From the NCBI RefSeq assembly GCF_004359215.1, contig NC_090613.1, forward strand, positions 350,267 to 414,266: a stretch of 64,000 nucleotides of DNA, written 5' to 3'. A program made the position numbers and the translations under genes. Every line of letters starts with the position of its first letter. The first letter of the stretch is position 1. This document shows positions 1-63,390 of the stretch, one piece after another. The notes beneath the pieces are model-generated. The model was not told where the DNA came from. It searched no databases and saw only the letters and a program-made list of their open reading frames with translations. Origin of the DNA: Bremia lactucae (Eukaryota; Oomycota; Peronosporomycetes; Peronosporales; Peronosporaceae).

Positions 1-1579
1 TCAGTGTCTACTGTAAAGGCCGCTGGATCACCCGGGGCCGAGTCCGTTAAGCCTTCAGGTTCTAACGTGACAACTAGAGGGGTGATGACGAGGTTATTCG
101 ACTCGTCGAACCTCTTTGGTGAGGAGTCATCATCCGATGACTCCGTGAGCGATGACCACTCTGGTAACGTTAGCATGCGTCACCCAGAAAATTAAGTGGT
201 CGCGAGGGGAAGAGTGCTGCTGGTGGTGATAGTTTGCATCACCAGGAAGGGAGTGATTCTAGAGATCGCTCCAAGGGCTAAGTTAACGTTGACGTTAACA
301 TGAGCCAACACGAGAGGGATCGCAATACGTTGCGGTTCGCTCCTGAAAATCGGCCTTGGTTGCCCTCTAGGAGAAACCTCATTCGTTGGTCTGTATGAAC
401 AACGATCGATGTCATATTCCGCTATTCAACTCATCCAGGTTTCACATGCCCGGTGAGGATGAGACGAAATTCCTCACCGATGCCTTTTCCGGCATCGGTG
501 GTACTCCTCTAAGCTGACAAAGGATGTCAAACCTTTGCGCTAAACTTCGACAGCTTTTATACAGCATGTACAAAAATAGGCCGTGAGGTCTGGCTTGACA
601 AGCTAAATGCTTTCCGTGAGCGGTTCGAGAAACAGACCGTAGTCGGTGCATGATATAAGCTGTACTGTTTGTCTTAGGAGACAGGGATTCCTTGCCTCTC
701 GTGGGGGGACCCATGCTCCTGCTGTTTTAAGGGTGCAGGTCATGCCCCAAAAGAAAGCATATTTCTTAAAGATCTTCATTGGAGAACGCTCATCTCTTAC
801 GAGATGCGTGAAGGGATTGAGAACCTCCAATCCTATTACGAGCGCGGAAAGCGCTCGTTCTCCGATGGACCTTCTGTCAAGGAGGATGGGGCTGTTCGTA
901 CTGCAAGACGAAACCTGGAACGTCCAACATCAATTGGGAACGAGGCTCCTAGCTATCATGTGAGGGTGGATACCCTCGCCAACGAACGAGATATCTCGTT
1001 CGAACTCTATTTACCTCTGGGTGGTTCGAAAAGCTTTCAACAAGAAAATGCTTCTCACCACTCGAATCCGTCAATGGATGTGGAGGGGGGGGGTCGGGTT
1101 CGCCTCGTTTGACGAACCCGAATCAACATCATGATTCGGATCACGCCCTTTATTTTTTGAGAAAGGATTCTGATCACGAGCGATCCCGTCGCCGCGAGTT
1201 AGCGGTGATGGCTAATAATGTTTCTCGTGACCAGTTGGTAGATTAAAATTGTGTGCAGGTTGCGACGGATCAACTGGCGAACGAGAGGACACATCAGTTC
1301 CTTCAAAACGAGATGGTGACAGCTCGTCAGAAGATCATTCCCTTGGAGAAAAAATGAGTGGATCGTCTGATTCAAGACAATCAGAGTCGGTACCGAGAAG
1401 ATACGGCTTTGGCTCGGAACCATGAAGCTTTGGTGAATGCCCTAGACTGTTCCGGTGAAATCCGGAACCGGAAGAAGTCTCGTACTGATGGTACGGCGGA
1501 GACGCTGAACATAAGACGTAGGATGCGTACGCATACTAAGAGGCAGCTCGATCGTGTACACATTGCCTTGGCGATGTAG
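1..1579 (+). pseudogene. Antisense ORF (aORF) of gypsy element R1, degenerate
   Basis: This is a broken reading frame running opposite to the pol gene of the same element. Open pieces lie at 4-195, 804-1112 and 1358-1579, with stops and frameshifts between them. The first piece is Ser/Asp-rich (SSSDDSVSDD). A middle block (KLNAFRERFEKQ, then PCLSWGDP) matches the aORF at 30.3-31.9 kb (KLNANRVKFEKR, PCLTWGDP). A later block YEMREGIENLQSYYERGKR matches IEMREAIDVLQSIY there. The 3' half overlaps the chromodomain and integrase tail on the minus strand. The start lies outside the window. The function is unknown; the shared protein blocks suggest it once encoded a protein. Confidence 0.55.
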
Positions 1580-9052: not shown

Positions 9053-9129
9053 GAAGAACTAAAATCGAATTTTTTGTACACCACATTAAAATGATGTGTC
9101 TAACACAATCATATCTAAACCAGCTTCGC
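9053..9129. promoter_or_regulatory. Compact bidirectional promoter region
   Basis: Only 77 bp separate the start codons of two divergent genes (9052 minus, 9130 plus), or 38 bp if the upstream in-frame ATG at 9091 is used. It holds an imperfect inverted repeat, ACACCACATT / AATGATGTGT, around 9078-9099. Both 5' UTRs must be very short or the transcripts must overlap. Confidence 0.5.
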
Positions 9130-10731: not shown

Positions 10732-10968
10732 CGACTCGAAGAAAGCTCCGTGCCTTGTTTGATTAAAGAGAATTGTAGGAGCATTTAATATTTTAAGCTT
10801 ATTGAAAATAATATATCGCGACACTTGGTGGTATTATGATCTACACATCGATGGAATTAATAAATTACAATGGAGCATAGGTCGTCGATGGTTTAGTAAT
10901 CCAATGACCCGTGTCGAAGCAGCTGATGATTTAACAATATTTATAAAGGACATCCACATGTTGGACAC

Positions 10969-11991
10969 TCAATTCAAGTTCTCTGACGTCGTCATGCCTG
11001 AAAGACCAGCGGTCTTAAGCTCGTGACGGCGCTGTGATCGAGCTCTCAAGACACCTCTTAAGAGACCGACAGCGGCTTTTGAAAGGGTGACGGCGACCAT
11101 TGGGTTTTCTGTTTCGAGACGCACAAGATTTGGAGCAATGACAATTGCGAGTTGGTCCACACCCATGTGGTTCTGCGATTGGAACTCGGCTACGTAGGTC
11201 AGTAAGTCTGCTAGCCATAGTATGATACTGCGCTCAACGTCACCTAGCAAGCTCAGTACTTCTAGCTCGACATTTTCAATCGATGCTAATCGCTCCATCT
11301 CACATGCGGGAATTTCATGAAGAATTGGCAATGGAAGCTCTCGGAACCACAGCTTGATGAGATCAGCAAGCACTCGAACGTCGTGCTTCATTCCTCGAAA
11401 AGCACCACAATTAATATCAAGCATCGCTTGATCTCGCTCCGCTTTACTAGGAGATTCGCGAAAGATGTGAGGAGTGATGTACCCTCTTTTTGCGATAAAG
11501 TGTTGCTGCAACATGACAAGCACGGCTGGAATGCGTTCGTCATAGCCTGAAATGGCAATGCGTGGAACCTGTCGAAATGGTAGCTTAAAGTGCTGATTCA
11601 ATAATCGCACAGGGTCGGGATTAACCGCATCTGAGCTCCCAATCATTCTACAGAAGCTCAAGCTTCCAGAAGGGGCGGAGCTTGTGCGTGTTCTCTTGGC
11701 TCGGCGTCCGCCTTTAAAGCTACTTAGGACCGGTGGGTCCAGCGCACTAATCGTGTCGGCACGGCCTCGTTCCACCCCAACGGCCAAATAGTCGGCAAAA
11801 TTGTCAGGGATGCCCTCAAACCTCGCTTCCTGAAAGTTGTAATGAATATGCACATCGTGCTTAACGCCATAGGGTGATCCGATCTGCAAAATCGCGGCCA
11901 AGTCGTCGGCTTGCGGAGCATGAGATGGTGAAGACGGAGACCCGCTATCAGTCTTGGCGGTGGAATGTTCTGGCAGCTGAATATTTAGCAT
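10969..11991 (-). CDS. CRIB-RhoGAP protein (Rho/Rac-type GTPase-activating)
   Basis: 340 residues, ATG at 11989-11991, no introns. Residues 37-63 form a CRIB/PBD motif (IGSPYGVKHDVHIHYNF... then F-x-GIP), which binds GTP-loaded Rac/Cdc42-type GTPases. Residues about 142-318 are a RhoGAP domain: VPRIAISGYDERIPAVL, the arginine-finger segment HIFRESP (R178), the LIKLWFRELPLPIL block and the IVIAPNLVR block with the conserved Asn (N288). CRIB plus GAP on one chain is the layout of plant RopGAPs. The likely job is switching off a Rac-like GTPase in polarity or actin control at membranes. It is convergent with the glycosyltransferase, 237 bp apart. Confidence 0.85.
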   Translation of the reverse strand: MLNIQLPEHSTAKTDSGSPSSPSHAPQADDLAAILQIGSPYGVKHDVHIHYNFQEARFEGIPDNFADYLAVGVERGRADTISALDPPVLSSFKGGRRAKRTRTSSAPSGSLSFCRMIGSSDAVNPDPVRLLNQHFKLPFRQVPRIAISGYDERIPAVLVMLQQHFIAKRGYITPHIFRESPSKAERDQAMLDINCGAFRGMKHDVRVLADLIKLWFRELPLPILHEIPACEMERLASIENVELEVLSLLGDVERSIILWLADLLTYVAEFQSQNHMGVDQLAIVIAPNLVRLETENPMVAVTLSKAAVGLLRGVLRARSQRRHELKTAGLSGMTTSENLN

Positions 11992-13330
11992 CGAAAGGAT
12001 TGAGGGATAGGTGGAATAATCACAAGTGTTAATGGCACGCGTTCACTTGGATAGTGATGGTCTGCAGGTGCATGCATAGAAATATGAATAAGATTTCTGG
12101 AAAAAGGACGGAGCGATCTTAATGATGCTGTCGTGATGAAAAGGCGCGACACCTGTAGCAGTCAGCTGAAGTGGTAAGGATGTCGTGTGCTAGCGAAGTA
12201 AAAAATGTCGTGTGCTTCCCTCGATTGTGAAGGTGTTGTTATCAATATATGAGCTCTCTGTTTGATGGCGTGCATAACCGATTAGGCATTGTCGCCGTTG
12301 GCTAGCGGTGGCTTGCTTTATAGGACTTTTCAAGCCGTTTTGAAACCGCTCGCGTTGTTCATGCTGGTAATACCATTGCGTTTACTTAAAAAAGAGGTTC
12401 AAAGCTTCGCGCATAGTTTGTACAATCACAGTACCCATCACGTCAAAGAAACTTACCAAAAAAACAGAATGTTTTCAGACTACACAGGGATATGGAGAAA
12501 GACTGTTGTGTGTCTTGCGTCACTATTGGTGACCGTGCTTGCATGGTTCGGTGCTAGAAGCTCTGGAGTGGCGACGTATGATTGGTCAGCCATTTTAACG
12601 TCGCCATACCGGTTACACACGTGCTCGGCATTCGTGATAGCGTCGGTGATGACAAACTGAGCTGAGAAAATCCCCCCAGAACTAGAAGCTTTCGCCACCG
12701 TACATGGAGCCGAGCTGGCCTTTTAACCAGCAATTGGGGTAAGGACGCTGGCGACGTAACTCATTTTACATCACGGAGACCGTTTTAGAAGTCGGATGAA
12801 AAGATCACTCGTTCGAATTCTTGATCTTCCTCCAGAAAATTTAATACAATCTGGAAAGAAATATATCAATTTCAAGGAATACAAGCACAGTATAACGTAT
12901 CCCATTATTTGGTCAAATCTCTCCATTGATGCAGACGCAACTCAAGTGGAGAGTGCGCCACAAGCTCGACGGGAAGAGCTCAGAAGCCTGAACGCTTCGT
13001 TTGATAACGAAAGCAGACCCAGTCCATGCTACAACAGATTCCATCAAATTAATGAAGTTAGCCTTTCTTAGACGCACTTGTACCGATGGGAGAATTTACT
13101 CACCACTAATTAAGCAATTTGGAATCGTATGTTTATTTAATGTTTCTCAGCAAGGCGGGGCAATGCCGAAAGTATCAAGAATAGAATCGATCCGTATTCC
13201 TAAATTAGTTTAGTTAGTATGCCCATTTTAAATTACTACCAACACAGTGGAATCACAAATAATGTACTGGCATTTAAGCAAACTCGCTGCAATCTCATGA
13301 ATGCAAACATTTCTAAATTGCGTCCAAGCT
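11992..13330. other. Intergenic spacer, no confident gene
   Basis: About 1.3 kb between RhoGAP and kinase genes. A 91-codon ATG frame at 12796-13071 and an ATG-poor frame at 12289-12660 show no recognisable domain, signal peptide or effector motif. A short repeat (GATGTCGTGTGCT / AATGTCGTGTGCT) occurs near 12180 and 12207. Confidence 0.45.
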
Positions 13331-15942
13331 TTACCGCTTGCCCATTGATTCCGAGATACTTGGGTTGAAAGTAAAGTCAGTAAATGTCGAATTAAGTACC
13401 ATGGATTGGTGCGTGCATACGCTGTCGACGACAGGCTCGGATGTGAATTCCGCGTCAAAATTGCCCACGTCCAGCTCGTTCTGCACCACTGGATGCCACG
13501 GTGGTGTCACCTCGTGCCGCATCAGCCCCTCCCAAGAGATGCCAGTGAAAAAAGGGTGGTCACGCAACTCTTGGGCTCCACGGGATCCAAGGCGCGCGGA
13601 TGGGTTAAATGTAAGCAAACCCGAAATCAAGGACACCGCTTCTGGAGGCATCTCGGGCGGCATCATCGCTGCAATCGATCCAGGTGTCATGATCTTCCTT
13701 ACCATCACTTCGCGATTAATATCGAAAAACGGATGCGCACCTGTAAGCATCTCGTACAGAAATACACCAAGCGACCACCAATCTACTGCGTAGCCATACT
13801 TCTGCATTTTGTATACTTCTGGAGCAAGATACTCGGGACTTCCCACAAGGGTCTGTGCGCCTTTGTCAGACACAACGTTTAATTTGGACAAGCCAAAGTC
13901 AGTAATGCGCACATGACCCGACGCTTCCACGAGAATATTCTCAGGCTTAAGGTCACGGTACGCGACTTTCAAACGATGAAGATGTTCGAGCCCTAGTACA
14001 AGCTCCGCCGCGTAAAATCGCGACAATTCGTACGAAAACCCACCGTCCGACATGTGATGAAATAGCTCGCCACCAGAACAATAGTCGGTCACGAGATACA
14101 ATTTGTCCTTGGTCTGAAACGAAAATCGCAATCGCGCAATAAACGGATGATCAATCTCTTCGAGAATAAGGCGTTCAGTCTTAATGTGCTCCTCTAAGCC
14201 GTGACGAACAACGTTTTTCTTACGCAACACTTTCATCGCGTACACAACGTGCGTGTCTTTCTTGCGCACGAGAAACACTTTTCCAATCGATCCTTTACCA
14301 ATTACTTTAATCAAGTCAAAATCACTAATCGAGACCCCGTGCACGTGCAACGATTTGCTGCTTCGATTACTAGCAATTGAAGCACGCACGGCTGACGAGC
14401 TTACGTCTGTGTCATATGAAGAGCGACGCGCAGTCTTTCGATGATGAGGAGATTCGCTTGCATTGGCTCCTAATACAGCGCTAAGACGGCGACTTTGTTT
14501 CCGAGGCTTTAGCGAATCGAGACGGTGACGAATAACATTTCCAAGCCACGTTCGTGTCTTTGAGTCTGACTCGGCGATAAAATCTGCAGCGCTAGAGCCA
14601 CGATCTCGCGCAGCAACGAAATACGAAAAGGTTGTTTCTAAAGAGAGACTAATCGTCCGCGCTTTGTTGCTGCTGTTGCGCCTCGAAAGCGCAGAAGCTG
14701 GGGACGTTTTTCCGTCCGAATGAGGACTGTTTCCGGTTAAAAAGCCCACAGAAATGCAGTTGCAGATCAGTTTCTCCTCTTCAACTGGAATGTGGCCACC
14801 CACTGGAACGTACGGGTCACCCTTAAAATTAATAGCTCGTTGTTTTAAAAACTGTACGATGCTTGGCGAGGTCGTGGACAGATCAATCCGATACGCGCCT
14901 TCCGCAAACACCATGGCATTCACACGCTTCACAAATTCTTCTTCACGCTTTTGAAGAAGCGTGACCACGGCTTTGGCTCCGAACGAGTACGCTAAGATAT
15001 AGACATTGCGTGCCTGTGCTCGCGAAATGATGTTTTCCCAAACGTACTGCATGTGTTCATCCGGGGAGGAATTGCCTCGAATCGAATACGTATCGTTTCC
15101 AATCGTGACATTATTTGTAGATGGATTAATCACAGCCACACCAAATCGCTTCGCGGCAGCGCTACGTAGGACTGGCAGCATTGATCCGAGCTCAATGCCT
15201 TCTTGAATCAATAAATCTCGACTCCAAATGCCCGGTTGAGCCCCTCGTCCACCATTGACAACCACAAGTAAATTATCCGTCACGCGCCAATCGGACGTCA
15301 AGAAAATGCTTGAACGCGCTTCTTTTGGCTCGTCCGGACGTAAATCAAGCGGTACTCGAGCCTGTTTGAAAGCCAATTCGGCCAGCATCTCTATCTGAAT
15401 GTGAAAGATTGCCGCCTTGACAATCTCATCGAGCTCGCATGCACGTCTTTCGTCACTCATGAACTCATACACAGCTTGGTTTGTCCGGCAGTGGCGAAGT
15501 GTTCCGGCTTCGTCAAAATAGTAGTCCAATTCCTCCAGCGATTCGAGTTGATCCGTGAGCACAACGCTGTCCCGCGTTTCGTACATGCCAGTGACGCTAC
15601 TAGCACTACTGTCTTCAAATTGCTGCTTCTGTAGCCGCTCAGCATCTTCGGCACTCGTGCACAAAATATACTGCTTGCCATCTTCGCAACTCGTGGGGTC
15701 CGCGATTCGCTGCAGCGACGCTGCGAGCAGAATTACGCAGTCTTCTAAGAGCCCCGGTGGCCGCTCCTCCACCTCAATATCGTCATCATTGCAGCTCTAT
15801 ACAATGTCACACGCCCAACGATCAGCTGTCAATAGATGAGATTCTCCTAAGAAGGCACTGCTTTTCGAGCGGAGAATACAAGTACCATGAGGAACTCATT
15901 GACGACAGAAAGCCTTGTATCTGTGGGCATAATAAACGCCAT
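13331..15942 (-). CDS. Arb2-domain / AGC protein kinase fusion
   Basis: The model is 840 residues in two exons (15942-15886 and 15796-13331). Exon 2 alone has no ATG at its head (GTG at 15772, stop TAG just upstream), hence the added exon. The N-terminal half (about 115-375) matches the Arb2/FAM172A domain: YYFDEAGTLRH, LLVVVNGG, IWSRDLLIQEGIELGSMLP, NSSPDEHMQYVWENI, AYSFGAKAV (hydrolase-like Ser), SPSIVQFLKQRAINFKGD. A Ser/Arg-rich linker follows. The kinase (about 512-770) has GKGSIGKV, AMK lysine (K541), YRDLKPEN, DFG, T-loop TLVGSPEYLAPE and an AGC tail ending in hydrophobic motif FTDFTF. All catalytic residues are present. AGC kinases phosphorylate Ser/Thr; Arb2 proteins in fungi act in small-RNA silencing complexes. 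The role of the pair is unknown. Confidence 0.85.
15797..15885 (-). other. Predicted intron of the Arb2-kinase gene
   Basis: 89 nt, donor GTACTT after the codon ATG of exon 1, acceptor TTGTATAG, phase 0. Joining gives NEFLM-SCNDDDIE in frame with the long exon. It is inferred because the main frame lacks an ATG and has a stop directly upstream. Confidence 0.55.
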
Positions 15943-30178: not shown

Positions 30179-30196
30179 TTACCCCTCCCTTAAACG
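30179..30196 (-). promoter_or_regulatory. Polypurine tract (plus-strand primer site)
   Basis: The minus strand reads TTTAAGGGAGGGGTAA immediately before TGTAACGGGG. The same tract precedes the LTR at 39914, so it marks the 3' end of the internal region. Confidence 0.8.
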
Positions 30197-30296
30197 ACAA
30201 TCACTCTGACTGTCATTGGATGGAGTGGTCACTATGTGACCACTTAATTTAAAAACGGTGTTGATTGGTCAGCATCATCATTTCAAATTCCATCGC

Positions 30297-31945
30297 ATGA
30301 AGAACAAACTCATACGGGGTGTTGATAGTGCTGCGCCTTCGGCTGCGGTTGCAGCCGCGGGTAACGCACTGTTATCTCTTGCGGCAGACGGAACGTCTGG
30401 CGTAGTGTCTTCCACTCGCACAACACTAGATGTTGCGAGTGCACGTGGTGAATCACCACGTGAATACGACCCCTCTTTGGAGGTCGACTACGAGTGCGAG
30501 TCGGATGAAGTGGCCGACTCGGGGAGAATGGAGCAGTCGCCTGATATCCGTCAGGCGGCTGACTATGAGCCTTCGAAGGAAAGGGGTCATTCTGATCGAC
30601 GTGGGAACAGTCTATCTGGATCCGACGATGAGGATGATCCCTCATCGCCCGTACGATCTCCCGTACAGTCTCCCATTCGGTCACCTGCACGTGTCTCTGT
30701 GCAAGGTGACGACGATGGCGTAAGGCATCGTAAGAAAAGTTCTTGTGGTACCCCTGCTTCAGTGGGTACCACTCAGGGGAGTGAAGACAGTAAAATGTCT
30801 CATCTCGCGCCGAAAAAGAAGCCGTGGCTTGTGCCAGAACGGCTAATCAATAGCTTGTCTGGAGAAACTACTCCTCACAATAAATATCCCTTAGTTATTG
30901 CGACAAAGCTACATGGCCTTTATCCCAGCGCGAAGAACTTTCGCGCTGAGGAAGATTTTTATCTATGTTTTTCTTAAGCATCGATGGTTTAGTGGCAACA
31001 ATAAGCGAGATAAAGTCTCGCTAATACAAGCCTAGAGCGCGTTCATTCGCAATGTCAAAGACATTGAACACGAAGCCTGGCTTCAAAAACTAAACGCGAA
31101 TCGCGTTAAGTTTGAGAAACGAACTCCAACCGGTGCAAAGTATAAATTGCATCGGTTGTCACGTGAGGCTGGGCTTCCATGCCTCACGTGGGGTGATCCC
31201 AGTCCGTGTTGTGTTGACAACTCGAAGAGGGTAAAAGGGGATGTCTATTCCCTTTCTTCGCCCTGGCGAAGGGCTCGCATCTCTATTGAGATGCGTGAAG
31301 CGATTGACGTTTTGCAATCGATTTACATGCGCCAGGGGCGCGTTTTTTCGATGAGCCTTCTGAACCATCGGGTGGGTCTTGTCATACTGACGGACGAGGC
31401 CCTCAACGTCAGCAACCAGCTGGGGACGAGGCTCCCAGCTGTCATGTGAAGGTCGATAACCACGCCAGCGAATAAGATAACTCGTTCGCTGCCCCTTCAC
31501 ATCACGGGTGTTCTGGATACGTTCCACAAGAAAACGCTGATCATCGTGGGAATCCACCAAATGTTGTGGTGGAGGAGGGAAAATTTGATCCGAACCGTGT
31601 GTCGTATCTAATGTCGAGGATCGACAAAAACGATCACTTCCTCCATGATTTGGAGGAGAGACTTGACCACGAGCGCGGCAAGCGTCGCTCGTTGGAGCAG
31701 ACGGTGCAGTCTCACCATATCGAGCAGTTGGAAGAGACCGTTCGAAGAGTGCGTACTCCATGTTGGAGTACGAACGGAAATATCATGCTGTTCGCGATGA
31801 GCTGTCGTCAGCTCATCGCAGTTTCGAGGATATTCGGAACCGGCATGAGAAACTTCAGGTTCAACATGAGAATCTGGCTTGCGATCACAAGAATCCTTTC
31901 GGGATTCTTGAAAAGGGTGGTCAAATCCGTCCTCAGATAAAGCCG
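30297..31945 (+). pseudogene. Antisense ORF (aORF), family A, best N-terminal copy
   Basis: It starts at the ATG at 30297, 119 bp from the 3' LTR and opposite to pol. Open to 30977 (about 226 residues): Ala-rich start (SAAPSAAVAAAGNALLSLAA), acidic stretch EVDYECESDEVADSG, Ser/Asp SGSDDEDDPSSP, PKKKPWLVPERLINSLSGE and VIATKLHGL. It then continues in other frames: EAWLQKLNANRVKFEKRTP, GAKYKLHRLSREAGLPCLTW, IEMREAIDVLQSIY (31290), and a coiled-coil-like C-terminus (31566-31940) with SRIDKNDHFLHDLEERLDHE and EYERKYHAVRDELSSAH. The 31.2-31.6 kb part is antisense to the chromodomain. The function is unknown; a structural or regulatory protein of the element is possible. Frameshifts make this copy dead. 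Confidence 0.6.
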
Positions 31946-33905
31946 CGTACTGATGGTACGGACTGAGCCGACCAACGTAAAACGTAGGATGCGTTCGCAT
32001 CCTAGGGTCTATCTCCTACGAGATAGACCCTAAATTTAGCCAATGCATATTTCATGGCAAGGAGTTCCTAGTCATGCACTGGGTAATTGCGTTCAGCTGG
32101 TTGCAGCTGACGAGATTGGTAACAGACGACGCGCTCCGCGCCGTCTGTATCGTAGTGCATTAACGCGCAGCCGAATTCGAAATCGCTGACGTCACGGACC
32201 ACGTGGAATGGTCTGTCTTGATCTGCAATTGCCACGATGAGCGATTGCATCAAGCTTTGCTTGATACTTCAAACGAACGCTGACAATCAGCGTTCCATAA
32301 TTATTTCTCATCTTTTTTCAATAAACGAGAGAGATGAACTATCATCTCTGCATAATTGCGAGAGTACTTGTGCAAGAACGCTGCTAAAACAAGGAATTTT
32401 CTAAGTCCTTGACATCGACTAAAATTGGCCAGTCGGTGGTTGCCTTGATCTTTTCGGATCAGGGCGCACGCCGTGTTTACCGACGATGCACCCAAGAAAT
32501 GGTATTTCGCTTGCAGCGAATATACACTTCTTGAGATTTGCGTGCAACTTATGCTTTCGCATAAGTGTAAGAACCTGATGAACGTGAATTTATGAACTAC
32601 CACGTCTGTCTTTCCGTCCATGGCTCGGCTATGGACGAATACATCGTCAAAATAACTCCGTGCATATTCTCGCACCGGTCTCAACAGATTCGTTTCGCAT
32701 CTGTTGGATGTTGCAGGGGAATGGCTGCTAATACCACAGGGGCGTTAGTAAGCCCCTGTGGCATTAGCAGCCATTCCCAGAGCATCCCACTGTAAGTGCT
32801 CACTGCTGTGTACGGGATGTCCCGTTCACGCATAAGGATCTGACATAAGTTATCCATCCGATCTATAGACGAAAATATGGTATTCTCAGACATACCATCT
32901 AAGATTACGTCTTTCTAGGTATCGGCGTTTGGGCCGGTACCGTTGCAGCATTTAGTTTATTGAATACGTGCACTATCCGCCACCCTCCTGTGGTCTTTCG
33001 CACACAGAAGGTCGGAGAGCTATGTGGGGAGGTTGACTCCCTCACATGGCCCGATTTAATTAATTGATAAAGAATTTATCGATCGCAAGTACTTGTTCAC
33101 GAGTCAGTGACTACTGTTTCATGACACAGTACTTCGAGCCCGGTTTGAGCTTGAGCTCATGTCGAGTGCCTTAATCCTGAGGCAACTCGCATTGAATTGT
33201 TTTAGGGAATACATCCCTGATTCAATCAGATTCTTGTATAAAGGATTTGTCTTTAGTGACTCCCAGGATTGGGTAGTATAACTCTCAAAACGAGTCTTCT
33301 CATCGAGACACTTTCGTCCATCGATGAGCTACTGAGAATCCGTTCGTTGTCAGATAATATTATTGCCGCCCGAATATTGGCTTGTCATCTTTGACAAGTA
33401 CGCAGATCAGCTTTACTTTGCTACGACAGAGATCACGCAAGAACCGTTCCGGTTCAAGCGTTAGCAATTGAGTTATCTCCGAAGTTGACTTTGGAGGCGC
33501 TTTGAGATCAAGTTTTTAAGCGCCTCCACTTGATCTATTGTTTACGAAGACATTAAATGTCTCAGTCTCTTCTTTGGAACTTCTTTTTAAGAATTCCTGG
33601 GATTTTTTCACCAAAGGTTTCTTAGGACATGTACCTGCTGAATCTTGGAGACGTATCCCTCAAATTTAAGTTGGGAAGTATCCTTCCCAGCTGCATCTAG
33701 CTGTGGTTGAGCTACGATAGCGAGATCCTCTACGATCGACTCTCCAGTCTATTTAGGACTTTGGCACTGTTTTTTAAAGACGGGCGCTTCAAACTTTCTT
33801 GGGTGTTCCTTTTTAAGCAAGCATCCTTGTTTCGTACCACTCAACTTATTCGAGTGGTTGAACTTCGACGCTGCCTGTGCTTCTGCACAGCCGTCGGAAG
33901 CGATG
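31250..33905 (-). pseudogene. Family A pol on the minus strand, with chromodomain
   Basis: Read right to left: protease-RT linker (33905-33292), RT (32.9-32.4 kb: IDRMDNLCQILMRERDIPYT, GMLWEWLLMPQGLTNAP, RSYFDDVFVHSRAMDGKTDV), start of RNase H (about 32.25-32.05 kb, VRDVSDFEFGCALMHYDTDG), then a jump to the integrase C-terminus (MRTHPTFYVGRLSPYHQY, 32.0 kb) and chromodomain (31.55-31.35 kb: QRFLVERIQN, SYLIRWRGYRPSHDSWEP). The integrase core is deleted. The chromodomain keeps the W-x4-SWEP pattern. The polypurine tract and LTR at 30.2-29.7 kb end this element. Confidence 0.8.
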
Positions 33906-35184: not shown

Positions 35185-38100
35185 TTCAGCGGTAATTTTT
35201 GCAGAGAACTAACGGGTTCTCAGCAGCTCATCGTTGGACGAAGTGTTCTCAATGTGAAGAATCGGATTGAGAGATATACTACTCAATCGTGGGAGTCATT
35301 TAAGATAAATCCTCTTTACGAGGATTTATAAGAATTCACGGATGTATTCCCTGAAGCAATTTTAATGCGAGTTGCCTGAAGATAAAGGCACTCGACATGA
35401 GATCGAGCTCAAACCGGGCTCGAAGTACTGTGTTATGAAGCAGTGGCCACTGCCTCGTGAACAAGTACTTGCGATCGATAAATTCTTTATCAAACGATTA
35501 AAAGCGGGCCATGTAAAGGAGTCAACCTTTCTACATAGCTCTTCGACCTTCTGTGTGCGAAAGGCTATAGGAGGGTGGCGGATAGTACACGCATTCAATA
35601 AACTGAATGCTGTAACGGTACCGGCTCAAACGCCGATACCTAGAAAAGCATAATTATAGATGGTATGGCTAACAATCTTTTCGTCTACGGATCTGATGGA
35701 CGGATCTTATCAGATCCTTATGCGTAAACGGGACGTCTTGTACACAGCAGTGAGCACTTCCAGCGGGATGCTCTGGGAATGGCTAATAATGCCTCAGGGG
35801 CTTAGTAAAGCCCCTGCAATATTGGACAGATGCGTAACTAATCTGTTGAGACCGGTGCGAGAATACAAACCGAGTTATTTTGACGATTTATTTGTCCATA
35901 GCCGGGCCATGGACGGAAAGACGGACGTGGAAGTTCATAAGACTCTCGTTCGTCAGGTTCTTACACTTATGCGAAAGCATAAGTTGTACGCAAATCTCAA
36001 AAAGTGTAGTCTCGTTGCAAGCGGAATACCACTTCTTCGGTGCATCGTCGGTAAACACGGCGTGCGCCCTGATACCGAAAAGATCAAGGCAGTTACCGAC
36101 TGGTCAGTTCGAGTCAATGTCAAGGGACTTAGAAAGTTCATTGAATAGCGACGCACTTGCACAAGTACTCCCGCATTTATGCCGAGATGACAGTTCATCT
36201 CTCTTGTCTCTTGAAAAAATATGAGAAATAGCTATAGAGCCGTGATTGTCAGCGTTCCTTAGGAGGTATCAAGCAATGCTCGATGCAATCGCCCATCTTG
36301 GCGATTGCTGATCAAGACAGACCATTTCATGCGGTCTGTGATGCTACCGAACTCGCAATCGGATACGGATGCCGCGGAGCGCGTCGTCTGTTATCAATCG
36401 CGTTAGCTGCAACCAGCTGAACGCAATTACCCAGTGCATGACAACTCCTTGCCATGAAATATGCACTGGCTAAGTTTTGGGTCTACCTCCTAGGAGAAAG
36501 ACCGTTCATCGTATATACGGACCATGCGTCATTACGCACGGCCGTACATAGGCCACACCTCTCGCAAAGAATGGCGAGGTGGCTAACCTTCTTCGCGGAG
36601 TTATATTTCTCCGTGGAATATAAATCAGGACGACTTAATATCGTTGCTGATGCGTTATCACGACAACCGGATTCGAGTCAGCTGTGCACCCCAACAGTGA
36701 AAGTGATCTTACTGTTGCAACACTCACTACCAGTGTTCCGTCATCAACCTTAGTTGATGACATAAAGAAAGTCTACAAAGAAGATAAGGACCTTCTATGT
36801 TTGATGGATCATTTAATGAATCCATCCGATAAATCTTTTAAAGATCTACCGGCTTTATATCGATCGTCATTCGATCGATGCACAACACGTAGCGGCTCAT
36901 CGTATTACACAGCCGTTACCGGCGACACCTCAAGTGTCGTCGTCCCAACTCACAATGATCTGCGCTTGCGCATCATGTTTGAGCGTCACGATGCAACAAT
37001 AAGTGGGTATTCTGGACGTGAGAAGACTTACCTCACAGTAAGTCGCGGCTTTTACTGGTACCGCCAGTATCAGTTCGTGCGCAAGTACATTCGTGCTTGC
37101 AAGGTATGTCAACGGGTGAAGCCTAGCCCTTCATTACGTGCACGTCTTTAACCTCTACCACTTCCGGTAGAGTGTTGGATCTCCGTATCAATGGACTTGG
37201 TCTTCTGATTTCCCGAAGACGACCACAAAAACAACGGAATCCTAATTCTTGAAAACAAATTCAGCATGATGGTAGATCTTGCTGCAGTACGAGAGTCGAT
37301 CACGGCTCCGGCCGTGCCCGTGTCTTTATCAACACGGTATTTAAACTCCATGGTTTACCCGTAAACTGGTCTTGGATTGAGATCCACGGTTTTCGGCGGA
37401 GTTTTGGCAATCCGTGTTCCGAACTTTCGGAACACGGCCGATTATGTCACTTTCTGATCATCCAGAGACAGATGCTTAAACGAAACACGTAAATAGTGTC
37501 CGTAAAGAGATACTTCGAGGTTACGTCTGATCGTATCCGAATTTGAGCCAGTTTTTACCTATTGTAAAATTCGCCATCAATAATTCGGTGCATGCGTCTT
37601 CAACGCATCCACCGCTCTTCGGGAATAACTTACGCCATCCACGTATACCCACCCAATCAGAGAGATCCTGTAGTTCAGGGGGGGTTGGACTTGCATGAGC
37701 AAAATCATTTCTGGCTTATGCTCATCACGCGTTGAAGTTTAAAACAACGCGAGTGATCCCGATGTCGAAGCAATCGACATCGAAGATGAGAAAGATCCCA
37801 TGGCAGCGCGCACAAAGCGCACTGGAAAAGACAAAACGAATGAGTCAGCAGAGAAATTTCTGCTGACTTGAGAATCAGTAATCCGTTTCGTACAGGATTT
37901 CATTGCTTACGCAGTGCACCGTCAGAAACGGAACGCAGACAAACATGGAAGAGCAAACGTTCTTTCAATTGAAATTAATGACCTATTACTACTCTTCACG
38001 GTAAACCTACCTAAGCGTGTAGTCACTAATGTGGGTAGCAGTTAACTACTACCCAAGTTCATTGGGCCTTACCGTGTACTGCATCGAAGAGGCAATGCGT

Positions 38101-38280
38101 ACACAATAAAATTGCCACGTAGGATGCGAACTCATCCTACGATTTACGTTGGTCGGCTCCGCCCGTTCCATCAGTACGTGGTAATTTCCGAGGACGGATC
38201 TGACCACCCTTTTCAAAAACCCTTAAGGAAGTTTTGCGTTCATGAACCCGATTCTCATGCTGAATCTGGAGTTTCTCGTG
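33906..38280 (+). pseudogene. Family A gag end and pol, near complete
   Basis: Plus-strand order: gag tail (33.95 kb), protease (34.2-34.45 kb), linker, RT (35.4-36.15 kb: FEPGSKYCVM-like LKPGSKYCVMKQWPLPREQV, LMDGSYQILMRKRDV, GMLWEWLIMPQGLSKAPA, YFDDLFVHSRAMDGKTDV), RNase H (36.45-36.67 kb: FIVYTDHASLRTA, LNIVADALSRQPD), integrase zinc-binding part (GREKTYLTVSRGFYW, CKVCQRVKP, 37.02-37.12 kb), a degraded integrase core (37.2-37.5 kb) and the C-terminal TIYVGRLRPFHQY block (38.13 kb). The pol frame does not reach a sense chromodomain because the next 0.6 kb is inverted. Several frameshifts. Confidence 0.8.
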
Positions 38281-38282
38281 TC

Positions 38283-38872
38283 GGGTTTCGCCCTAGGGAA
38301 GTGCTCGCATCTCTATCGAGATGCGCGATGCGACTGACGTTTTGTAATCAATTTATAAGCGCCAGAGGCGCGTGTTTTACGATGGACCTTCTGATACATC
38401 GGGTGGGTCTCGTCATACTGAAGGACGAGGCCTTTAACGTCAGCAACCAGCTGGGAACGAGGTTCCCAGCTGTCATGCGACGGTGGATAACCGCGCCAGC
38501 GAACAAGATGACTCGTTTGCTGCCCCTTGACATCACTGTGGTTTCGGATGCGTTCAACAAGGAAACGTTGACCACCGTGGGAATCCACCAATGGTTGTGG
38601 CGGAGGAGGGAATATTAGATCCGACCCTTGTGTCGGATCTAGAGTCGAAGATCGACAAAATCAATCGCTTCGTCCATTATTTGAAGGAGGGACTTGATCA
38701 CGAGCGCGGTAAACGTCGCTTGTTTGAGCAGACGGTGCAGGTCAACCATATCGAGCGGTTGGAAGACCGTTCGAAGAGTGTGTACTCCATGTTGGAGTAC
38801 GAACGGAATTTCTACGCTCTTCGTGATGAGCTGTCGTCAGGTCATCGCGGTTTCGAAGATCTCCGGACAAAG
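38283..38872 (-). other. Inverted internal segment (chromodomain / aORF middle)
   Basis: In other copies the chromodomain lies on the same strand as pol. Here it lies on the minus strand (38591-38313: QRFLVERIRNHSDVKGQQ, HLVRWRGYPPSHDSWEP) although pol is plus, and the aORF coiled coil (SKIDKINRFVHYLKEGLDHE) is plus although the aORF N-terminus is minus. The whole segment matches 31258-31850 on the same strand, so it is inverted relative to its own element. Breakpoints lie near TTTCG sequences at 38283 and 38865. Confidence 0.8.
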
Positions 38873-38874
38873 GG

Positions 38875-39790
38875 GAGCAAACATCCCCTTTCACTGGTTT
38901 TGTGTTGCCGACACAAGACGGACATGAATCACCCACGTGAGACATGGAAGTCCTGCCTCACGAGACAATCGATGCAATTTAAACCTTGCACCGGATAAAG
39001 TTCGTTTTTCAAACTTAACGCGAATCGCGTAAAGGATTGGAAGCCAGGCTTCGCGTCCAATGTCTTTGACATTGCGAATAAGCGCGCTTGGGGGATTGCA
39101 TCGCGAGTTTTTATCTCGCTTGTTGTTGCCACTATGCCATAGATGCTTAAGAAAAGAGTCGAGATAAAAATCTGTCTCAGCGCGAAAATTCCTGGGATCA
39201 GGCCATGTAGCTTTGTCGCAATAAATAAGGGAAATTTATTGTGAGTAGTGGCCTCTCCAGACAAGCTATTAATTAGCTGTTCGGGCAAAAGCCACGGCTT
39301 TTTCTCAGGGGCAAGACGAGACCTTTTAGTGTCTACGATACCCTGAGTAGTACCTACTGAAGCAGGGGTACCACAAGAACTTCTATTACGATGGCTTACG
39401 CCATCGTCATCACCACGCACAGAATTATGTGCGGGTGACGGCACGAAAGACGGTGCTGGCGACGAGGAATTATCCTCATCGTCGGAACCGAACATGCTGT
39501 AGCGAGTGCTACCAGCACGTCCACCTGAATGAGCCCCCTTATTTGAAGGCTCATAGTCATCCACCTGACGATGATCAGGCGGCTGTTCTGTTCTCATCGA
39601 GTCGGCCATTTCGTCCAACTCGCAATCGTAGTCGACCTCCAAAGAGTGGTCGCATTCACGTGGTGTATGTAGGAGAAGATGACACTACGGCAGACGGAAC
39701 GTCTGCCGCAAGAGACAATAATGCGTCGCCCGCGGCTGCATAAACCGCAGCCAAAAGGGCCGCTCTATTTGCACACCACATGGACTTGTT
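38875..39790 (-). pseudogene. Antisense ORF (aORF) N-terminal half, second family A copy
   Basis: Minus frame 39642-38929 (237 residues): EVDYDCELDEMADSM, YEPSNKGAHSGG, FGSDDEDNSSSP, PEKKPWLLPEQLINSLSGEA and FIATKLHGL. It aligns block by block with the aORF at 30.3-31.0 kb and has the same position between pol and 3' LTR. The start codon region (about 39790) is degraded. Confidence 0.6.
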
Positions 39791-50987: not shown

Positions 50988-51316
50988 AAAAAGATCACTC
51001 GATCCAGCAACATAAGTGATTACCAACCGCTTAAAATAATTTAAGTTTCCTAGCTACAAACCGAAGCTTGTTAAGTAGAAAGGCTTTCAGTCAGGAAAAG
51101 AATAATACCAGCGATGTCAAGGGGGGGCATAAGCTACTGTCGTGTCGTATACAACCGCGAACACCCGTATATTAGCACGCAGCCCCACCGTCGTAGAAAA
51201 AGACTAAGCTGGGCCTAAACTTTTAAGAAAATCTACCGTTGTCGTTAACAAGCCCCCCAGAAAGGAATACTAAAAAAATGATCTGCAAAAAGTAGCCATC
51301 TGTGACATTGCGAATC
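50988..51316. other. Spacer and 5' flank of the tetraspanin gene
   Basis: Unique DNA without coding signal; a G-run at 51120-51127. It presumably holds the promoter of the plus-strand tetraspanin gene. Confidence 0.45.
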
Positions 51317-52722
51317 ATGCGTCCGACCCGCAAACTCCTGCGTCTATTGACGTTACTGAGCTTTTGCTGTGGCGTCTCGCTGCTTGGTCTTGCGCTGCAT
51401 GTAGTTATATCCACAACATTTGGTGCGACTGCAGCTTCGCTTGGGTTCTTGGGTCTTTGCATCGTACTGCTTTCGGTGTTGGGCTTCGTGGGTGCTGGAA
51501 GGGAAAAGAGTCGCTTGTTGCTGTTCTTCTTTTTCATGAATTTTGCACTCGTCACAGGGCTCTTTGTGGCCTGCTATGCCGCTTTTTTCTTACAAAACGC
51601 GCTTGATACTTGGGTGAAGCACCACTGGACGGCGCCCGTCTTGGCAGGACTGCGGCAATCCTCCTGCTGCACCACGTACAGCGATGCAGTGGTGTATTTG
51701 CATAAGCGCAGTGTAGCCATTGGTGCGATTGGCATGACGTGCATGCTTTTGATACTATTTTCCATGTATTGCGTCGTACGCATTGTCACGGTACCCATTA
51801 TTATGCGTAATATGCTATCAGTCATGAACGTCGCCTTGACGCTTCTCGGTATAGCTCTCTTTCTCTTTGGCTTGTCAGGCAAAGTGCACGAAGAAATGAC
51901 ATCGGGTCAAACTTGGATTGGTACGGAACGTGTTGTATTGCAATATCCTTGTACACGTTTGAATTGGTGATTTTTTTTCAATGTAGCCATCATATTCATT
52001 ATTGTCGGCACGTTGATGGTTGCACTTTCAATATTGGGTACCATTGGCGCGAGGTCTAAAAGCCGATCGATGCTTTTTATTGTACGTGATGTCATAGATT
52101 ATTCTAAACGATTGAAATTTGTTGACCAATAGTATTATTATTGCGGTCATCAGTACATTCTTGGTCTCGCGACCTGCCTCGTTGCGCTTATTGTATGTGC
52201 TGTGAGTGCCTTCTTATTTTCTGATCGCCTTGCCACTACATACAACACACACACGAGCTCTTCGCTGGCGTGTGACATTCGTCTTTTCGGCTGTACAAAT
52301 TGCACTGACGTGGCAGCAGAGATGCTACCATGCGAAGGTGTGAGACATACATCAAGCGGGTCTTGGATCTCGTGCAATACCTCGGTAAGCGACGACATAA
52401 TAAACTCCCATAGCGACTGCATTGCCGACATGACCGTATTACATCGTCAAACACATCCGAGTCACGACAAAAGTGATGTACGTTTAATTATTGTCAGCTA
52501 TTTACGACTAAAGGACGTGACTTATCGATTATTTCGTGGCAGATTGCGCAATGCGGCAAATGCCCGGAATGGTCTGCATCCGACATTCAAGCGTACCTTC
52601 AAAGCACGCTTGATCTTCTCGGACTCTTTGCTCTTGTCGTGTGTCTCTTTATGCTCGTAGGATGTAGTAGTGCACTCATTTTGCGACAAAGTCTCGCAGG
52701 GTATCAGACCGACTCGCTTTAA
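51317..52722 (+). CDS. Tandem (8-TM) tetraspanin-like membrane protein
   Basis: Four-exon model: 51317-51920, 51987-52081, 52154-52477, 52543-52722; introns of 66, 72 and 65 nt with donors GTACGG, GTACGT, GTACGT and acceptors TAG, CAG, CAG. It gives 400 residues. Unit 1 has four membrane segments (LLTLLSFCCGVSLLGLALHV; FLGLCIVLLSVLGFVG; FMNFALVTGLFVACYAAFF; GAIGMTCMLLILFSMYCVV) and a short loop with a Cys-Cys pair (SSCCTT). Unit 2 repeats the plan (MNVALTLLGIALFLFGL; FIIVGTLMVALSILGTIGAR; YILGLATCLVALIVCAVSAF; LDLLGLFALVVCLFMLVGCS) with a long Cys-rich loop containing CDIRLFGCTNC, PCEG and CGKCPEW. Basic SR/KSR residues follow TM2 in both units, as in tetraspanins. These proteins organise membrane microdomains. 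The start is the ATG at 51317. Confidence 0.8.
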
Positions 52723-52785
52723 AAAACCCGCGCCACGAGTACCTGTGAAAATTAATAACAAAGCGACATACACGCAGCCATGTTC

Positions 52786-61406: not shown

Positions 61407-61424
61407 CCATCCCCCTCTTTAAGA
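61407..61424 (-). promoter_or_regulatory. Polypurine tract of family C
   Basis: The minus strand reads CTTAAAGAGGGGGATGG directly before TGTAACGGGC. Confidence 0.75.
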
Positions 61425-61538
61425 ACGAATTTACATTTTAAAATTCGTCAAAGAGGAGAGAGGAACTGCGAGCAGCTTTACGCGCCGCTAGTTCACTCGA
61501 TCACTCTAGCGCACGTGTTTCCATACACGGCGCCCAAG

Positions 61539-62957
61539 ATGCCACCTAAAAGGGGCCACGTTGGTGGGTCGTCTGCGAAGACGCCCACTCAACCTCGCAC
61601 TAAGCGCACGCGCCGCGTTAATTCGCCGGCCGCGTCTAATGCCTTAGTCGGAAACGCAGACAGCCACTGCGGCTGTCGCGTTAACAGGGCTAAAGGATCC
61701 ATCCCACGTTAACAGTGAGGATGTTGATCCGTCGCTCATTGTCGACTACAATGAGTCGACACCGTTGCCGTAGTGATGCGGACAACGAGCTCATGAGGAG
61801 TGATGATGCGGCATTATTGCCCATCCAAACTTCTCTCATGGCTCACAACATGGAGACAGCATCGTTTACGAATGCTGTCCCATCGTCTGGGCTGGAAAGC
61901 TCAGCGAGAGGTAATGAGAGCGCTGCCCATAAAGGCGCAGCTGCTTCTCCGTTGGGTATAACCGCAACGCCTTATGCTCAGACCATAATTCATAATGGTT
62001 CTGACATAGAGGATTCGGAGCCTAAAGCTCCGCCGACGACACGTGAACGTGCTCAGTCGGTGTCACAAGCCAGTCGTTTAAAACGCGGCTATGTGACGGG
62101 TGGCATTCCAAAGATGCCCCCTCCATCTAAATGGCCTCGTTTAGACGGGCCAAGAGCGTCGCTCCTAGAGCGCGCTCTTGTAGACGCACATAATTATTAT
62201 GGCGTCTTTCAATCATGGAGGGCTCAGGGAAAATCGCTTGGGCGTATTTTCCCGATCCCGGTCGTGTTGCGTTCAAATGAAACGCCCGACCAATACGAGG
62301 CGGAATTTCTGCGCCGCATTCAACCACGTTCCGATGTGATGAAACAGCGGTCGCAGCGAACTGGTGTCGCCCTGCATGTGAAAGAGATCCTGGGCAATAC
62401 TATACCCTATATTTCTTCTCACTACCCCACTTGTGCTAGTCTAGAAGCCTCAGCTGGTGCTCCTTTTCATAGGCAGCAACCAAGCCGGGTACATCAATAC
62501 GTAGGGTATCGATCGGTTCCCAAGAGTAAAAACTCTTCGGGTAACCTTTCCATTGGACGAGGATCTGATACCCTTGCGTCACGGAGCGGTGGGCAAGCAA
62601 CCTTCCAACAAGGAAGCGTTGATTCCCACCCGCATCCATCAGTGCAGGTGGCGCCCGATAGGAGCGGCGATCTCGCCCACCTAATCGCGGCTGCCTTGCC
62701 TTCGTCCGTTCAGTCGCATGCGTTAAGCGCTGCTGAACGACGTATTGCGGATCTCGAGAGTCAAGTCTCACGACTGACCTCGGATCTCGTTGATGTCCGA
62801 GCGAAGGCTCGTCAGGGTTATGAACGCCTGAAGACTCGCTTGGACCTTTTCGAGAGGATAATGCTGAGGGATCCGCGTTACTCGCGTGATGTCCCTCGCT
62901 CTCCAAGTCCTGTTCGTGGAGGGAGGAGTCGGTCTGATAGCTTTTCGCCTTCACCGT
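61539..62957 (+). pseudogene. Antisense ORF (aORF), family C, longest open copy
   Basis: It starts at the ATG at 61539 (MPPKRGHVGGSSAKTPTQPR, basic and nuclear-signal-like: KRTRRVN). Two early frameshifts (VNSEDVDPSLIVDYNESTP lies in a second frame) lead into a frame open from 61715 to 63085. Within it: EDSEPKAPPTTRERAQSVSQ, PPPSKWPRLDGPRASLLERA, DAHNYYGVFQSWRAQGKSLG, PDQYEAEFLRRIQPRSDVMK, then a region antisense to the chromodomain, then a coiled coil AAERRIADLESQVSRLTSDL and an Arg/Ser/Pro tail SPSPVRGGRSRSDSFSPSPS. The layout (acidic/Ser N-terminus, conserved middle, coiled coil) parallels the family A aORF. The aORF proper ends near 62957, where integrase DNA joins. Function unknown. Confidence 0.6.
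62436..62954 (-). pseudogene. Family C chromodomain end of pol
   Basis: A minus frame of 172 residues. A linker with SRDPQYVVQQRLTHATERTK leads into the chromodomain (about 62665-62440): NQRFLVGRLLAHRSV, YQILVQWKGYPKSFYSWEPI, DTLRIDVPGLVAAYEKEHQL. The aromatic cage positions look kept. It overlaps the aORF on the other strand over its whole length. The frame upstream is displaced by the inverted piece at 62958-63390. Confidence 0.75.
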
Positions 62958-63390
62958 CCCCCTGGAGCGAGTTCTTGCCGATGGTAGAATTTGCCATCGA
63001 CAATTCAGTGCATGCTTCTACAAATCATACACTGGTTTTCGTGAATAACTTACGCCACCTACGTATACCCGCCTTTAAAGCATGACTCTTACTAAAGTTG
63101 TGAGGGACTCGCTCGGGCAAAGAGTCTTCTAGCTCTTGATCATCACGCATACACCCGAACGACGCTCGACTCACAGTCGGCGTCACCATCGGTCTCCTTA
63201 ACTAGATGAGGGTATGTGACCTCATTCGGGTCAACATACCGTTTCGAGACCAGAAATACGTCGTTCAGCAGCGTTTAACGCCTGAGACTGAACGGACGCA
63301 GGTAAGGCAGCCGCGAGTAGGTGGGCAAGATCGCCACTCCTATCGGGCGCCACCTGCACTGATGGATGCGGATGGGAATCACGCTTCCTA
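62958..63390 (+). pseudogene. Inserted plus-strand integrase and linker pieces
   Basis: WSEFLPMVEFAIDNSVHAST and FVNNLRHLRIPAF (62.96-63.08 kb) are an integrase segment of family A type. QKYVVQQRLTPETERTQVRQ and RHSYRAPPALMDADGN (63.25-63.38 kb) repeat the pre-chromodomain linker found on the minus strand at 62.8 kb. Both are opposite to the surrounding pol, so a rearranged piece lies here. Confidence 0.65.

What the first reader, a model, noticed from the sequence alone, without database searches (positions are those of the whole stretch)
30297..33290. Conserved antisense ORF downstream of pol in chromodomain Ty3/gypsy elements
In element R1 (1-1579), the 30 kb element, the 39 kb element and the family C element (61.5-63.0 kb), a second ORF lies between the pol chromodomain and the 3' LTR on the strand opposite to pol, and it overlaps the chromodomain. 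Polypurine tracts at 30179 and 39897 and in family C (61407) fix the pol orientation. Protein blocks recur in the same frame and order: an acidic Ser/Asp N-terminus, PWL-PE-LINSLSGE, a KLNA-R--FEK block with PCL-WGDP, EMRE-I--LQS, and a coiled coil. Antisense extra ORFs are known from some plant gypsy lineages; I do not know one described for oomycete chromoviruses, and overlap with the chromodomain is unusual. A gag-like, silencing-related or regulatory role is open.
Basis: partly seen in the sequence, partly recalled or inferred. Interest (0 to 1): 0.75.

Follow-up and report, generated by a model that had tools for sequence, protein, structure and literature searches.

The report
Antisense gene in downy-mildew gypsy retrotransposons
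Mobile DNA elements in what looks like a downy-mildew genome carry an extra protein-coding gene on the strand opposite to their enzyme gene, partly written over the same DNA; backward genes of this kind are known from plant and fungal elements, but I found no report of this one.

Summary
The antisense ORF (aORF) is real, but its copies in this window are broken. In relatives with open frames it starts about 105-120 bp from the polypurine tract at the 3' LTR, runs against pol, overlaps the chromodomain and the linker before it, and encodes roughly 450-590 aa: acidic N-terminus, conserved middle, long predicted coiled coil, basic stretches. In family A (30 and 39 kb elements) the part outside pol is under purifying selection: dN/dS 0.45 (0.34-0.58) in 7 of 10 copies, 0.53 in all 10. 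In the overlap constraint is divided: the chromodomain stretch follows pol, the linker stretch rather the aORF. In family C most of the frame looks neutral among 39 copies (0.95); only the coiled-coil end is constrained (0.48). Named homologues come from Peronospora and Hyaloperonospora. The aORF has one phase against the chromodomain in all four window elements. It is not the element's gag, which lies in sense. No Pfam family or fold identified it. Most likely it is an antisense-transcribed nuclear accessory or regulatory protein, working like Grande gene23 or HTLV-1 HBZ; transcription and function are untested. New variant of a known kind.

The parts
30297..31984 (+). aORF of the 30 kb element (family A), broken by three frame changes near 30.94, 31.34 and 31.74 kb
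   Evidence: tblastn of P0016; ATG at 30297 in the ORF and the leader
30182..30191 (-). polypurine tract (pol strand) beside the 3' LTR of the 30 kb element
   Evidence: read from the sequence printed
30278..30284 (+). INR-like site (YCAYTYY) 19 nt upstream of the aORF ATG
   Evidence: motif definition from PMC3599244
31159..31761 (-). pol 3' end with chromodomain, antisense to the aORF
   Evidence: Pfam Chromo E 2.1e-11
31357..31539 (-). chromodomain of the 30 kb element
   Evidence: tblastn
38140..39666 (-). aORF of the 39 kb element (family A), degenerate, with an inverted segment at about 38264-38881
   Evidence: tblastn
195..1498 (+). aORF of element R1, degenerate (stops and a frame change)
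   Evidence: tblastn with P0016, P0019, P0037, P0043, P0119
871..1065 (-). chromodomain of R1, antisense to its aORF
   Evidence: tblastn
61539..62923 (+). aORF of the family C element; its N-terminal pieces and the 61715-63085 frame are out of register in this copy
61411..61420 (-). polypurine tract (pol strand) beside the 3' LTR of the family C element
   Evidence: read from the sequence printed
61501..61507 (+). INR-like site (TCACTCT) 38 nt upstream of the aORF ATG
62436..62954 (-). pol 3' end with chromodomain of the family C element, antisense to the aORF
   Evidence: Pfam Chromo E 2.4e-8

Best explanation
The aORF is a genuine accessory gene of chromodomain Ty3/gypsy elements of downy-mildew oomycetes. 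I infer that it is transcribed in antisense from a promoter in or just inside the 3' LTR. Its start codon lies about 105-120 bp from the polypurine tract and its stop codon lies at or shortly after the end of the conserved integrase C-terminal module on the other strand, so it uses the tail beyond pol plus the linker and chromodomain of pol (overprinting). The product has an acidic, probably disordered N-terminus, a family-specific middle domain, a long coiled coil through which I infer it dimerises, and basic stretches that look like nuclear localisation signals. I infer that it enters the nucleus and regulates the element there (transcription, silencing or integration), in the manner of Grande gene23 or HTLV-1 HBZ. 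Shown: gene, position, overlap, conservation across species, selection in family A. Inferred: transcription, dimerisation, nuclear entry, regulatory action.
For: Frame open against chance. Purifying selection outside pol in family A: 0.45 [0.34-0.58] for 7 of 10 copies, 0.53 [0.43-0.63] for all 10, 0.42 and 0.41 on two sets of three disjoint pairs; middle domain 0.32 [0.18-0.68]. Of the other five frames only the mirror frame, whose wobble faces the aORF wobble, is below 1 (0.51), and it holds 102 stops in 3200 codons. Divided constraint in the overlap: chromodomain stretch, pol 0.49 (A) and 0.59 (C), aORF 0.99 and 1.35; linker stretch, aORF 0.67 [0.47-1.00] (A, 7 copies) and 0.70 [0.50-0.98] (C, 39 copies), pol 0.93 and 1.05. 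Antisense stops in the overlap, against the number expected from the pol protein and codon usage: 0, 1, 1, 0, 3 against 3.9, 4.2, 6.4, 6.5, 7.7 in five copies (a sixth, 24-pair piece: 1 against 1.0); in five pol stretches outside the overlap 25, 39, 23, 14, 5 against 19.0, 33.8, 16.2, 13.9, 3.6. Homologues: 15 for family C, 32 with a profile, 126 for family A of which 120 were listed. One phase in the 30 kb, 39 kb, R1 and C elements (my arithmetic on coordinates). Helix 430-536 at block pLDDT 89-97 from residue 431. Basic stretches KKPRTD or KKQRTD near the C-terminus (P0016, P0037, P0119) and KRTRR near the N-terminus with an RS-rich tail (P0001; KRTRR also in P0006) read. INR-like site in 23 of 24 family C leaders (2.4 expected) and 10 of 10 family A leaders (1.4 expected). 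gag is separate.
Against: In family C the part outside pol shows no constraint among 39 copies (0.95 [0.81-1.14]), also in the 250 most divergent pairs (0.98), and the mirror frame is lower (0.82); I explain this by old, decaying copies (chromodomain pol itself 0.59), which is inference. In the linker stretch the mirror frame is as low as the aORF (0.59 in A, 0.66 in C), so there the argument for the aORF rests also on its being open; within C only the half 62781-62952 is clearly constrained (0.48 [0.30-0.89]), the other half is 0.92. No transcript, protein or localisation data. INR sites are shared by descent within a family, family A leaders carry the motif on the reverse strand too (10 of 10), and no FPR follows it. 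No DNA-binding or silencing-suppressor domain found. Middle domains of A and C do not align, so a common function is not shown.
Confidence: 0.6

Rival explanations
1. The antisense strand matters as RNA only: a transcript from the 3' LTR pairs with the genomic RNA and tunes silencing, and the ORF is a by-product.
For: Antisense transcripts without coding capacity are described for other elements (PMC7264820, part 2). The part of family C outside pol looks neutral.
Against: dN/dS 0.45 and third-position excess in family A, fewer antisense stops than expected in the overlap, and protein architecture kept across species.
Confidence: 0.1
2. The aORF protein is a structural or particle component (nucleocapsid-like, or a partner in the integration complex) rather than a regulator.
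For: RS-rich C-terminus and coiled coil of family C would fit RNA binding and assembly (my reading of P0001).
Against: A sense gag with zinc knuckle exists; the fold searches matched no capsid, but they are inconclusive.
Confidence: 0.15
3. The aORF is a captured host gene or a nested element carried in reverse.
For: Capture of host genes by LTR elements is described (PMC7264820, part 1).
Against: The C-terminal half overlaps pol in one phase in all four window elements, which a simple insert would not give; two homologue clusters have 524 and 1335 members, as expected of element genes, though many others have one. I did not search oomycete genomes for a single-copy host relative.
Confidence: 0.07
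4. The frame is an artefact of composition or a mirror of pol constraint.
For: The only A-C profile match lies antisense to the chromodomain, so part of the apparent conservation is probably dictated by pol.
Against: Most of the aORF lies outside pol and is constrained there in family A; pol stretches outside the overlap show no lack of antisense stops.
Confidence: 0.03

Closest known systems
Antisense ORFs of plant Ty3/gypsy elements: Grande gene23, RIRE2, Retand, PvRetro13
   Same: Antisense ORF between pol and 3' LTR, kept in most copies; for Grande a nuclear product and a promoter upstream of gene23 (as summarised in PMC7264820, parts 1 and 2 of 3 read).
   Different: Plant hosts; Retand is a non-chromovirus lineage whose antisense ORFs mostly encode TRP28 in a region of 2.9-6.6 kb (PMC11963269, passages). 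No TRP28 (PF04195) match in six proteins scanned here. Here the ORF overlaps the chromodomain and linker; whether any plant case overlaps pol I did not see.
brtn of Boty (Botrytis cinerea)
   Same: Antisense gene in a non-plant gypsy element (PMC7264820; title of Zhao 2011 in the reference list of PMC8365987, passages).
   Different: Fungal host. Its sequence was not at hand and not compared.
HTLV-1 HBZ
   Same: Antisense, 3'-LTR-driven nuclear protein that lowers expression of the provirus (PMC10186651, passages).
   Different: HBZ has a bZIP domain; none was found in six aORF proteins at E 0.1. Resemblance of layout only, no homology claimed.
Chronos elements of oomycetes
   Same: Oomycete Ty3/gypsy elements with a chromodomain (PMC5348765, passages).
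   Different: Chronos carries an extra plant-type RNase H; none was found in the pol pieces scanned here. The word antisense does not occur in that paper's main text.

Membership tests
Antisense accessory ORF of LTR retrotransposons (aORF-3R) | Lies between pol and 3' LTR | tested here: met
   L015: LTRs 1963-2520 and 8588-9144, open aORF frame 7379-8491 on the other strand; it also overlaps the pol 3' end
Antisense accessory ORF of LTR retrotransposons (aORF-3R) | Strand opposite to gag and pol | tested here: met
   Chromodomain, integrase pieces and gag on the other strand
Antisense accessory ORF of LTR retrotransposons (aORF-3R) | Conserved as a protein | tested here: met
   Family A dN/dS 0.45; homologues in other genera. 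In family C within the genome only the coiled-coil end is constrained
Antisense accessory ORF of LTR retrotransposons (aORF-3R) | Own antisense transcription | not testable with these tools
   Only an INR-like motif was seen
Chromovirus (Ty3/gypsy with integrase chromodomain) | Chromodomain after the integrase C-terminal module | tested here: met
   PF00385 and SH3_Tf2-1
Chromovirus (Ty3/gypsy with integrase chromodomain) | RT phylogeny within the chromovirus clade | not tested
   No tree was made; parts of pol read N in many copies
Chronos | Additional plant/archaeal-type RNase H | tested here: inconclusive
   Not found in the pieces scanned; pol was scanned in part only
Retand-type TRP28 antisense protein | PF04195 domain | tested here: not met
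   No match at E 0.1 in P0002, P0005, P0006, P0016, P0022, P0037; not among the 25 of 48 families listed for the 68 members of A3
HBZ-type bZIP protein | bZIP domain | tested here: not met
   No match at E 0.1 in P0002, P0005, P0006, P0016, P0022, P0037

The most novel reading that the evidence does not exclude
Chromodomain retrotransposons of downy mildews evolved an antisense regulatory protein overprinted on their own targeting module: the chromodomain stretch is kept for pol while the adjoining linker is kept for the coiled coil of the antisense protein, so one DNA segment couples the module presumed to guide integration with an antisense, HBZ-like controller, whose core was replaced or diverged beyond recognition between families while the phase was kept.
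Probability: 0.35. Interest if true: 0.75.

Novelty: new variant of a known kind. Interest (0 to 1): 0.5.

Why it matters
Antisense accessory genes of LTR retrotransposons are known from plants and from fungal Boty, with undetermined functions (PMC7264820). A case in oomycete chromodomain elements suggests that such genes arose more than once in unrelated hosts. The split of constraint within the overlap is a natural example of how two antiparallel genes share one sequence. Many repeated 'uncharacterized' or 'unnamed' proteins in downy-mildew proteomes can be recognised as retrotransposon antisense genes rather than host genes.

Tried and rejected
Gag hypothesis: rejected as the element's only gag, because a sense gag with zinc knuckle exists.

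'Core-binding (CB) domain' name of P0022 in UniRef: Pfam gives nothing for P0022 at E 0.1; not used.

Domains: in single-protein scans no Pfam match to an aORF protein reached its cut-off. Among 68 members of A3 the best were coiled-coil families in two members each (E 0.00025 and 0.0009); cut-offs are not shown there and 25 of 48 families were listed.

Family C against a diverged relative in L004: codon-position differences 0.252/0.227/0.315, a weak third-position excess from one pair. A pol translation used as a query was in a wrong frame; its matches were discarded and the chromodomain search was done. A first run of the stop-expectation script failed part-way and was redone.

Rows dropped: L004 from the family C alignment (two aORFs in one span; 39 of 40 copies kept). 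The first family C dN/dS run used 16 of 39 copies (0.86); all 39 give 0.95, the figure I use. Family A figures use 7 of 10 copies (L042, L048, W39 left out for poor alignment); all 10 give 0.53. INR count: 24 of 40 family C leaders could be located. In one search codon usage came from two of the control stretches (both family C), was used for family A too, and two controls share a duplicated stretch of L019.

Promoter idea: INR found, FPR not adjacent; weak support only.

Literature: six searches showed no antisense ORF in oomycete elements that I could recognise from titles and abstract starts. Listings were 11 of 11, 20 of 226, 20 of 27, 12 of 17, 5 of 5 and 15 of 551 papers; the library is PubMed Central under open licences, without bioRxiv and most subscription papers, so this is not proof of absence.
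Full report
What is in the window. The window belongs to an unnamed 115.9 Mb genome. That it is a downy-mildew-like oomycete is my inference from the named protein hits (Peronospora effusa, P. farinosa, P. matthiolae, Hyaloperonospora arabidopsidis). Ten database homologues compared by tblastn map to four elements: five family A proteins to the 30 kb element (30369-31984), the 39 kb element (38140-39666) and R1 (about 195-1498), five family C proteins to the family C element (61539-62923). Each aORF lies on the strand opposite to a chromodomain; the 39 kb copy is disturbed by an internal inversion. None of the window copies is intact.

Relatives in the same genome. A search with the family C frame gave 95 matches and one with the 30 kb (family A) frame 150; both are lower bounds, as only the best candidates are scored. 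I fetched 40 family C copies (the window copy among them) and 8 family A copies. Several keep the frame open. In family C, L003 and L016 have stop-free stretches of 525 and 490 codons that run to the shared stop; L003 holds the start codon 32 codons in, L016 begins after it. In family A, stretches of 389, 400, 428 and 431 codons occur in L042, L041, L046 and L045, the last continuing in the same frame after one stop. The database homologue P0016 (86% identical over the query) is 559 residues long; 13 homologues viewed have 447-593 residues.

Anatomy. One unmasked family C element, L015, has LTRs at 1963-2520 and 8588-9144, 93.9% identical. In sense order it shows Retrotrans_gag and a zinc knuckle, a protease match below its cut-off, RNase H, an SH3_Tf2-1-type integrase C-terminus and a chromodomain. 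L019 adds integrase H2C2 and, below its cut-off, the integrase core; a reverse transcriptase match was seen in another element of the window at 35660-36148. The aORF start codon is about 120 bp from the polypurine tract in the window's family C copy and about 105 bp in the 30 kb element. In L045 the aORF stop lies antisense to PTFYVGRL, near the end of what I recall as the GPY/F module; in L008 (family C) it lies about 15 codons after FYVGRL. So the gene stops close to where conserved integrase begins. aORF codon position 1 faces pol codon position 1 in the 30 kb, 39 kb, R1 and C elements (my arithmetic on coordinates; for A also printed).

Is it coding? In the part outside pol the aORF frame has 4 stops in 3207 codons against 76-342 in the other frames for family A, and 30 in 8551 against 309-551 for family C. 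In family A diversity is concentrated at aORF third positions (0.068, 0.055, 0.118 for 7 copies) and dN/dS is 0.45 [0.34-0.58] (7 of 10 copies) or 0.53 [0.43-0.63] (all 10); two sets of three disjoint pairs give 0.42 and 0.41. The middle domain is lowest, 0.32 [0.18-0.68]. The other frames give 1.06-1.55, except the mirror frame (0.51), which is full of stops. Family C differs: 0.95 [0.81-1.14] over 39 copies, mirror frame 0.82, with clear constraint only in the coiled-coil end (0.48 [0.30-0.89]). Chromodomain pol in the same copies is 0.59. I read family C as old copies whose differences arose mostly after insertion; that is inference. Its protein is conserved across species (15 homologues, 42-87% identity).

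The overlap. Chromodomain stretch: pol constrained (0.49 in A, 0.59 in C), aORF not (0.99, 1.35). Linker stretch: aORF 0.67 [0.47-1.00] in A and 0.70 [0.50-0.98] in C, pol 0.93 and 1.05. The mirror frame is similar to the aORF there (0.59, 0.66) but not open. In C the constraint sits in one half of the linker stretch. Given the pol protein and codon usage, the overlap should hold 3.9-7.7 antisense stops in five copies and holds 0-3; a short sixth piece shows 1 against 1.0; five pol stretches outside the overlap hold as many as expected or more (limits of this control are told under Tried and rejected). The two genes thus appear to share the segment by dividing it. The one weak A-C profile match lies antisense to the chromodomain, so that similarity is probably imposed by pol.

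Protein. Family A: MRG or MRC near the start, acidic Ser/Asp region, helical middle domain with a CPCC motif, a 107-residue predicted helix, KKPRTD-type stretch near the end. Family C: MPPKRG...KRTRR at the start, acidic stretch, a different conserved middle (PIPVVLR.NET, KQRSQRI.FA), predicted coiled coil, RS-rich tail. No Pfam match reached its cut-off in single-protein scans, no PDB sequence match meant more than a coiled coil, and no fold match was usable. The nuclear-signal reading of the basic stretches is mine, not a tool's.

Expression. The oomycete INR motif is YCAYTYY, most common within 50-100 nt of the start codon (PMC3599244, passages). It occurs at -37 to -43 in 23 of the 24 family C leaders that could be located (of 40 copies) and at -19 in 10 of 10 family A leaders, against 2.4 and 1.4 expected by shuffling; on the reverse strand it occurs in 2 of 24 and 10 of 10, and no FPR is adjacent. 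This is a hint, not proof, of an antisense promoter.

Comparison with known systems. Antisense ORFs between pol and the 3' LTR are described for plant Grande, RIRE2, Retand and PvRetro13 and for fungal Boty; for Grande a nuclear product and an own promoter are reported (PMC7264820, parts 1 and 2 of 3). Retand antisense ORFs mostly carry TRP28 and are thought to be regulatory (PMC11963269, passages). HBZ of HTLV-1 is the best-studied functional parallel that I read of (PMC10186651, passages). The oomycete survey PMC5348765 does not contain the word antisense. Six literature searches showed no oomycete case in the papers listed. I therefore file the finding as a new variant: known position and orientation, new host group, new proteins, and an overlap with the chromodomain.

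Verdict. That family A carries a real antisense gene I hold at about 0.95; a nuclear regulatory function at about 0.6, untested.

Noticed in passing
38264-38881: The 39 kb element has an internal inverted segment of about 600 bp that carries part of the aORF and the chromodomain in reverse.
   Followed up: partly
62620-62757 and 63244-63381: Inverted duplication (91%) of a stretch of the aORF/pol overlap inside the family C element of the window: a second rearrangement of the same kind of segment.
   Followed up: no
L004:8924-9658: A second, diverged aORF (about 40% protein identity to family C over its best piece, with stops) lies next to a family C copy and points to a further related family.
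   Followed up: partly
9091-15772: Host-like genes: glycosyl transferase group 1 (9091-10731), RhoGAP with a P21-Rho-binding match (10969-11991), and an 813-aa protein with an Arb2 domain and a protein kinase domain (13331-15772).
   Followed up: partly
51302-54672: A tetraspanin-like ORF (51302-51970, just under the Pfam cut-off) and a 628-aa protein with a calponin homology domain (52786-54672).
   Followed up: partly
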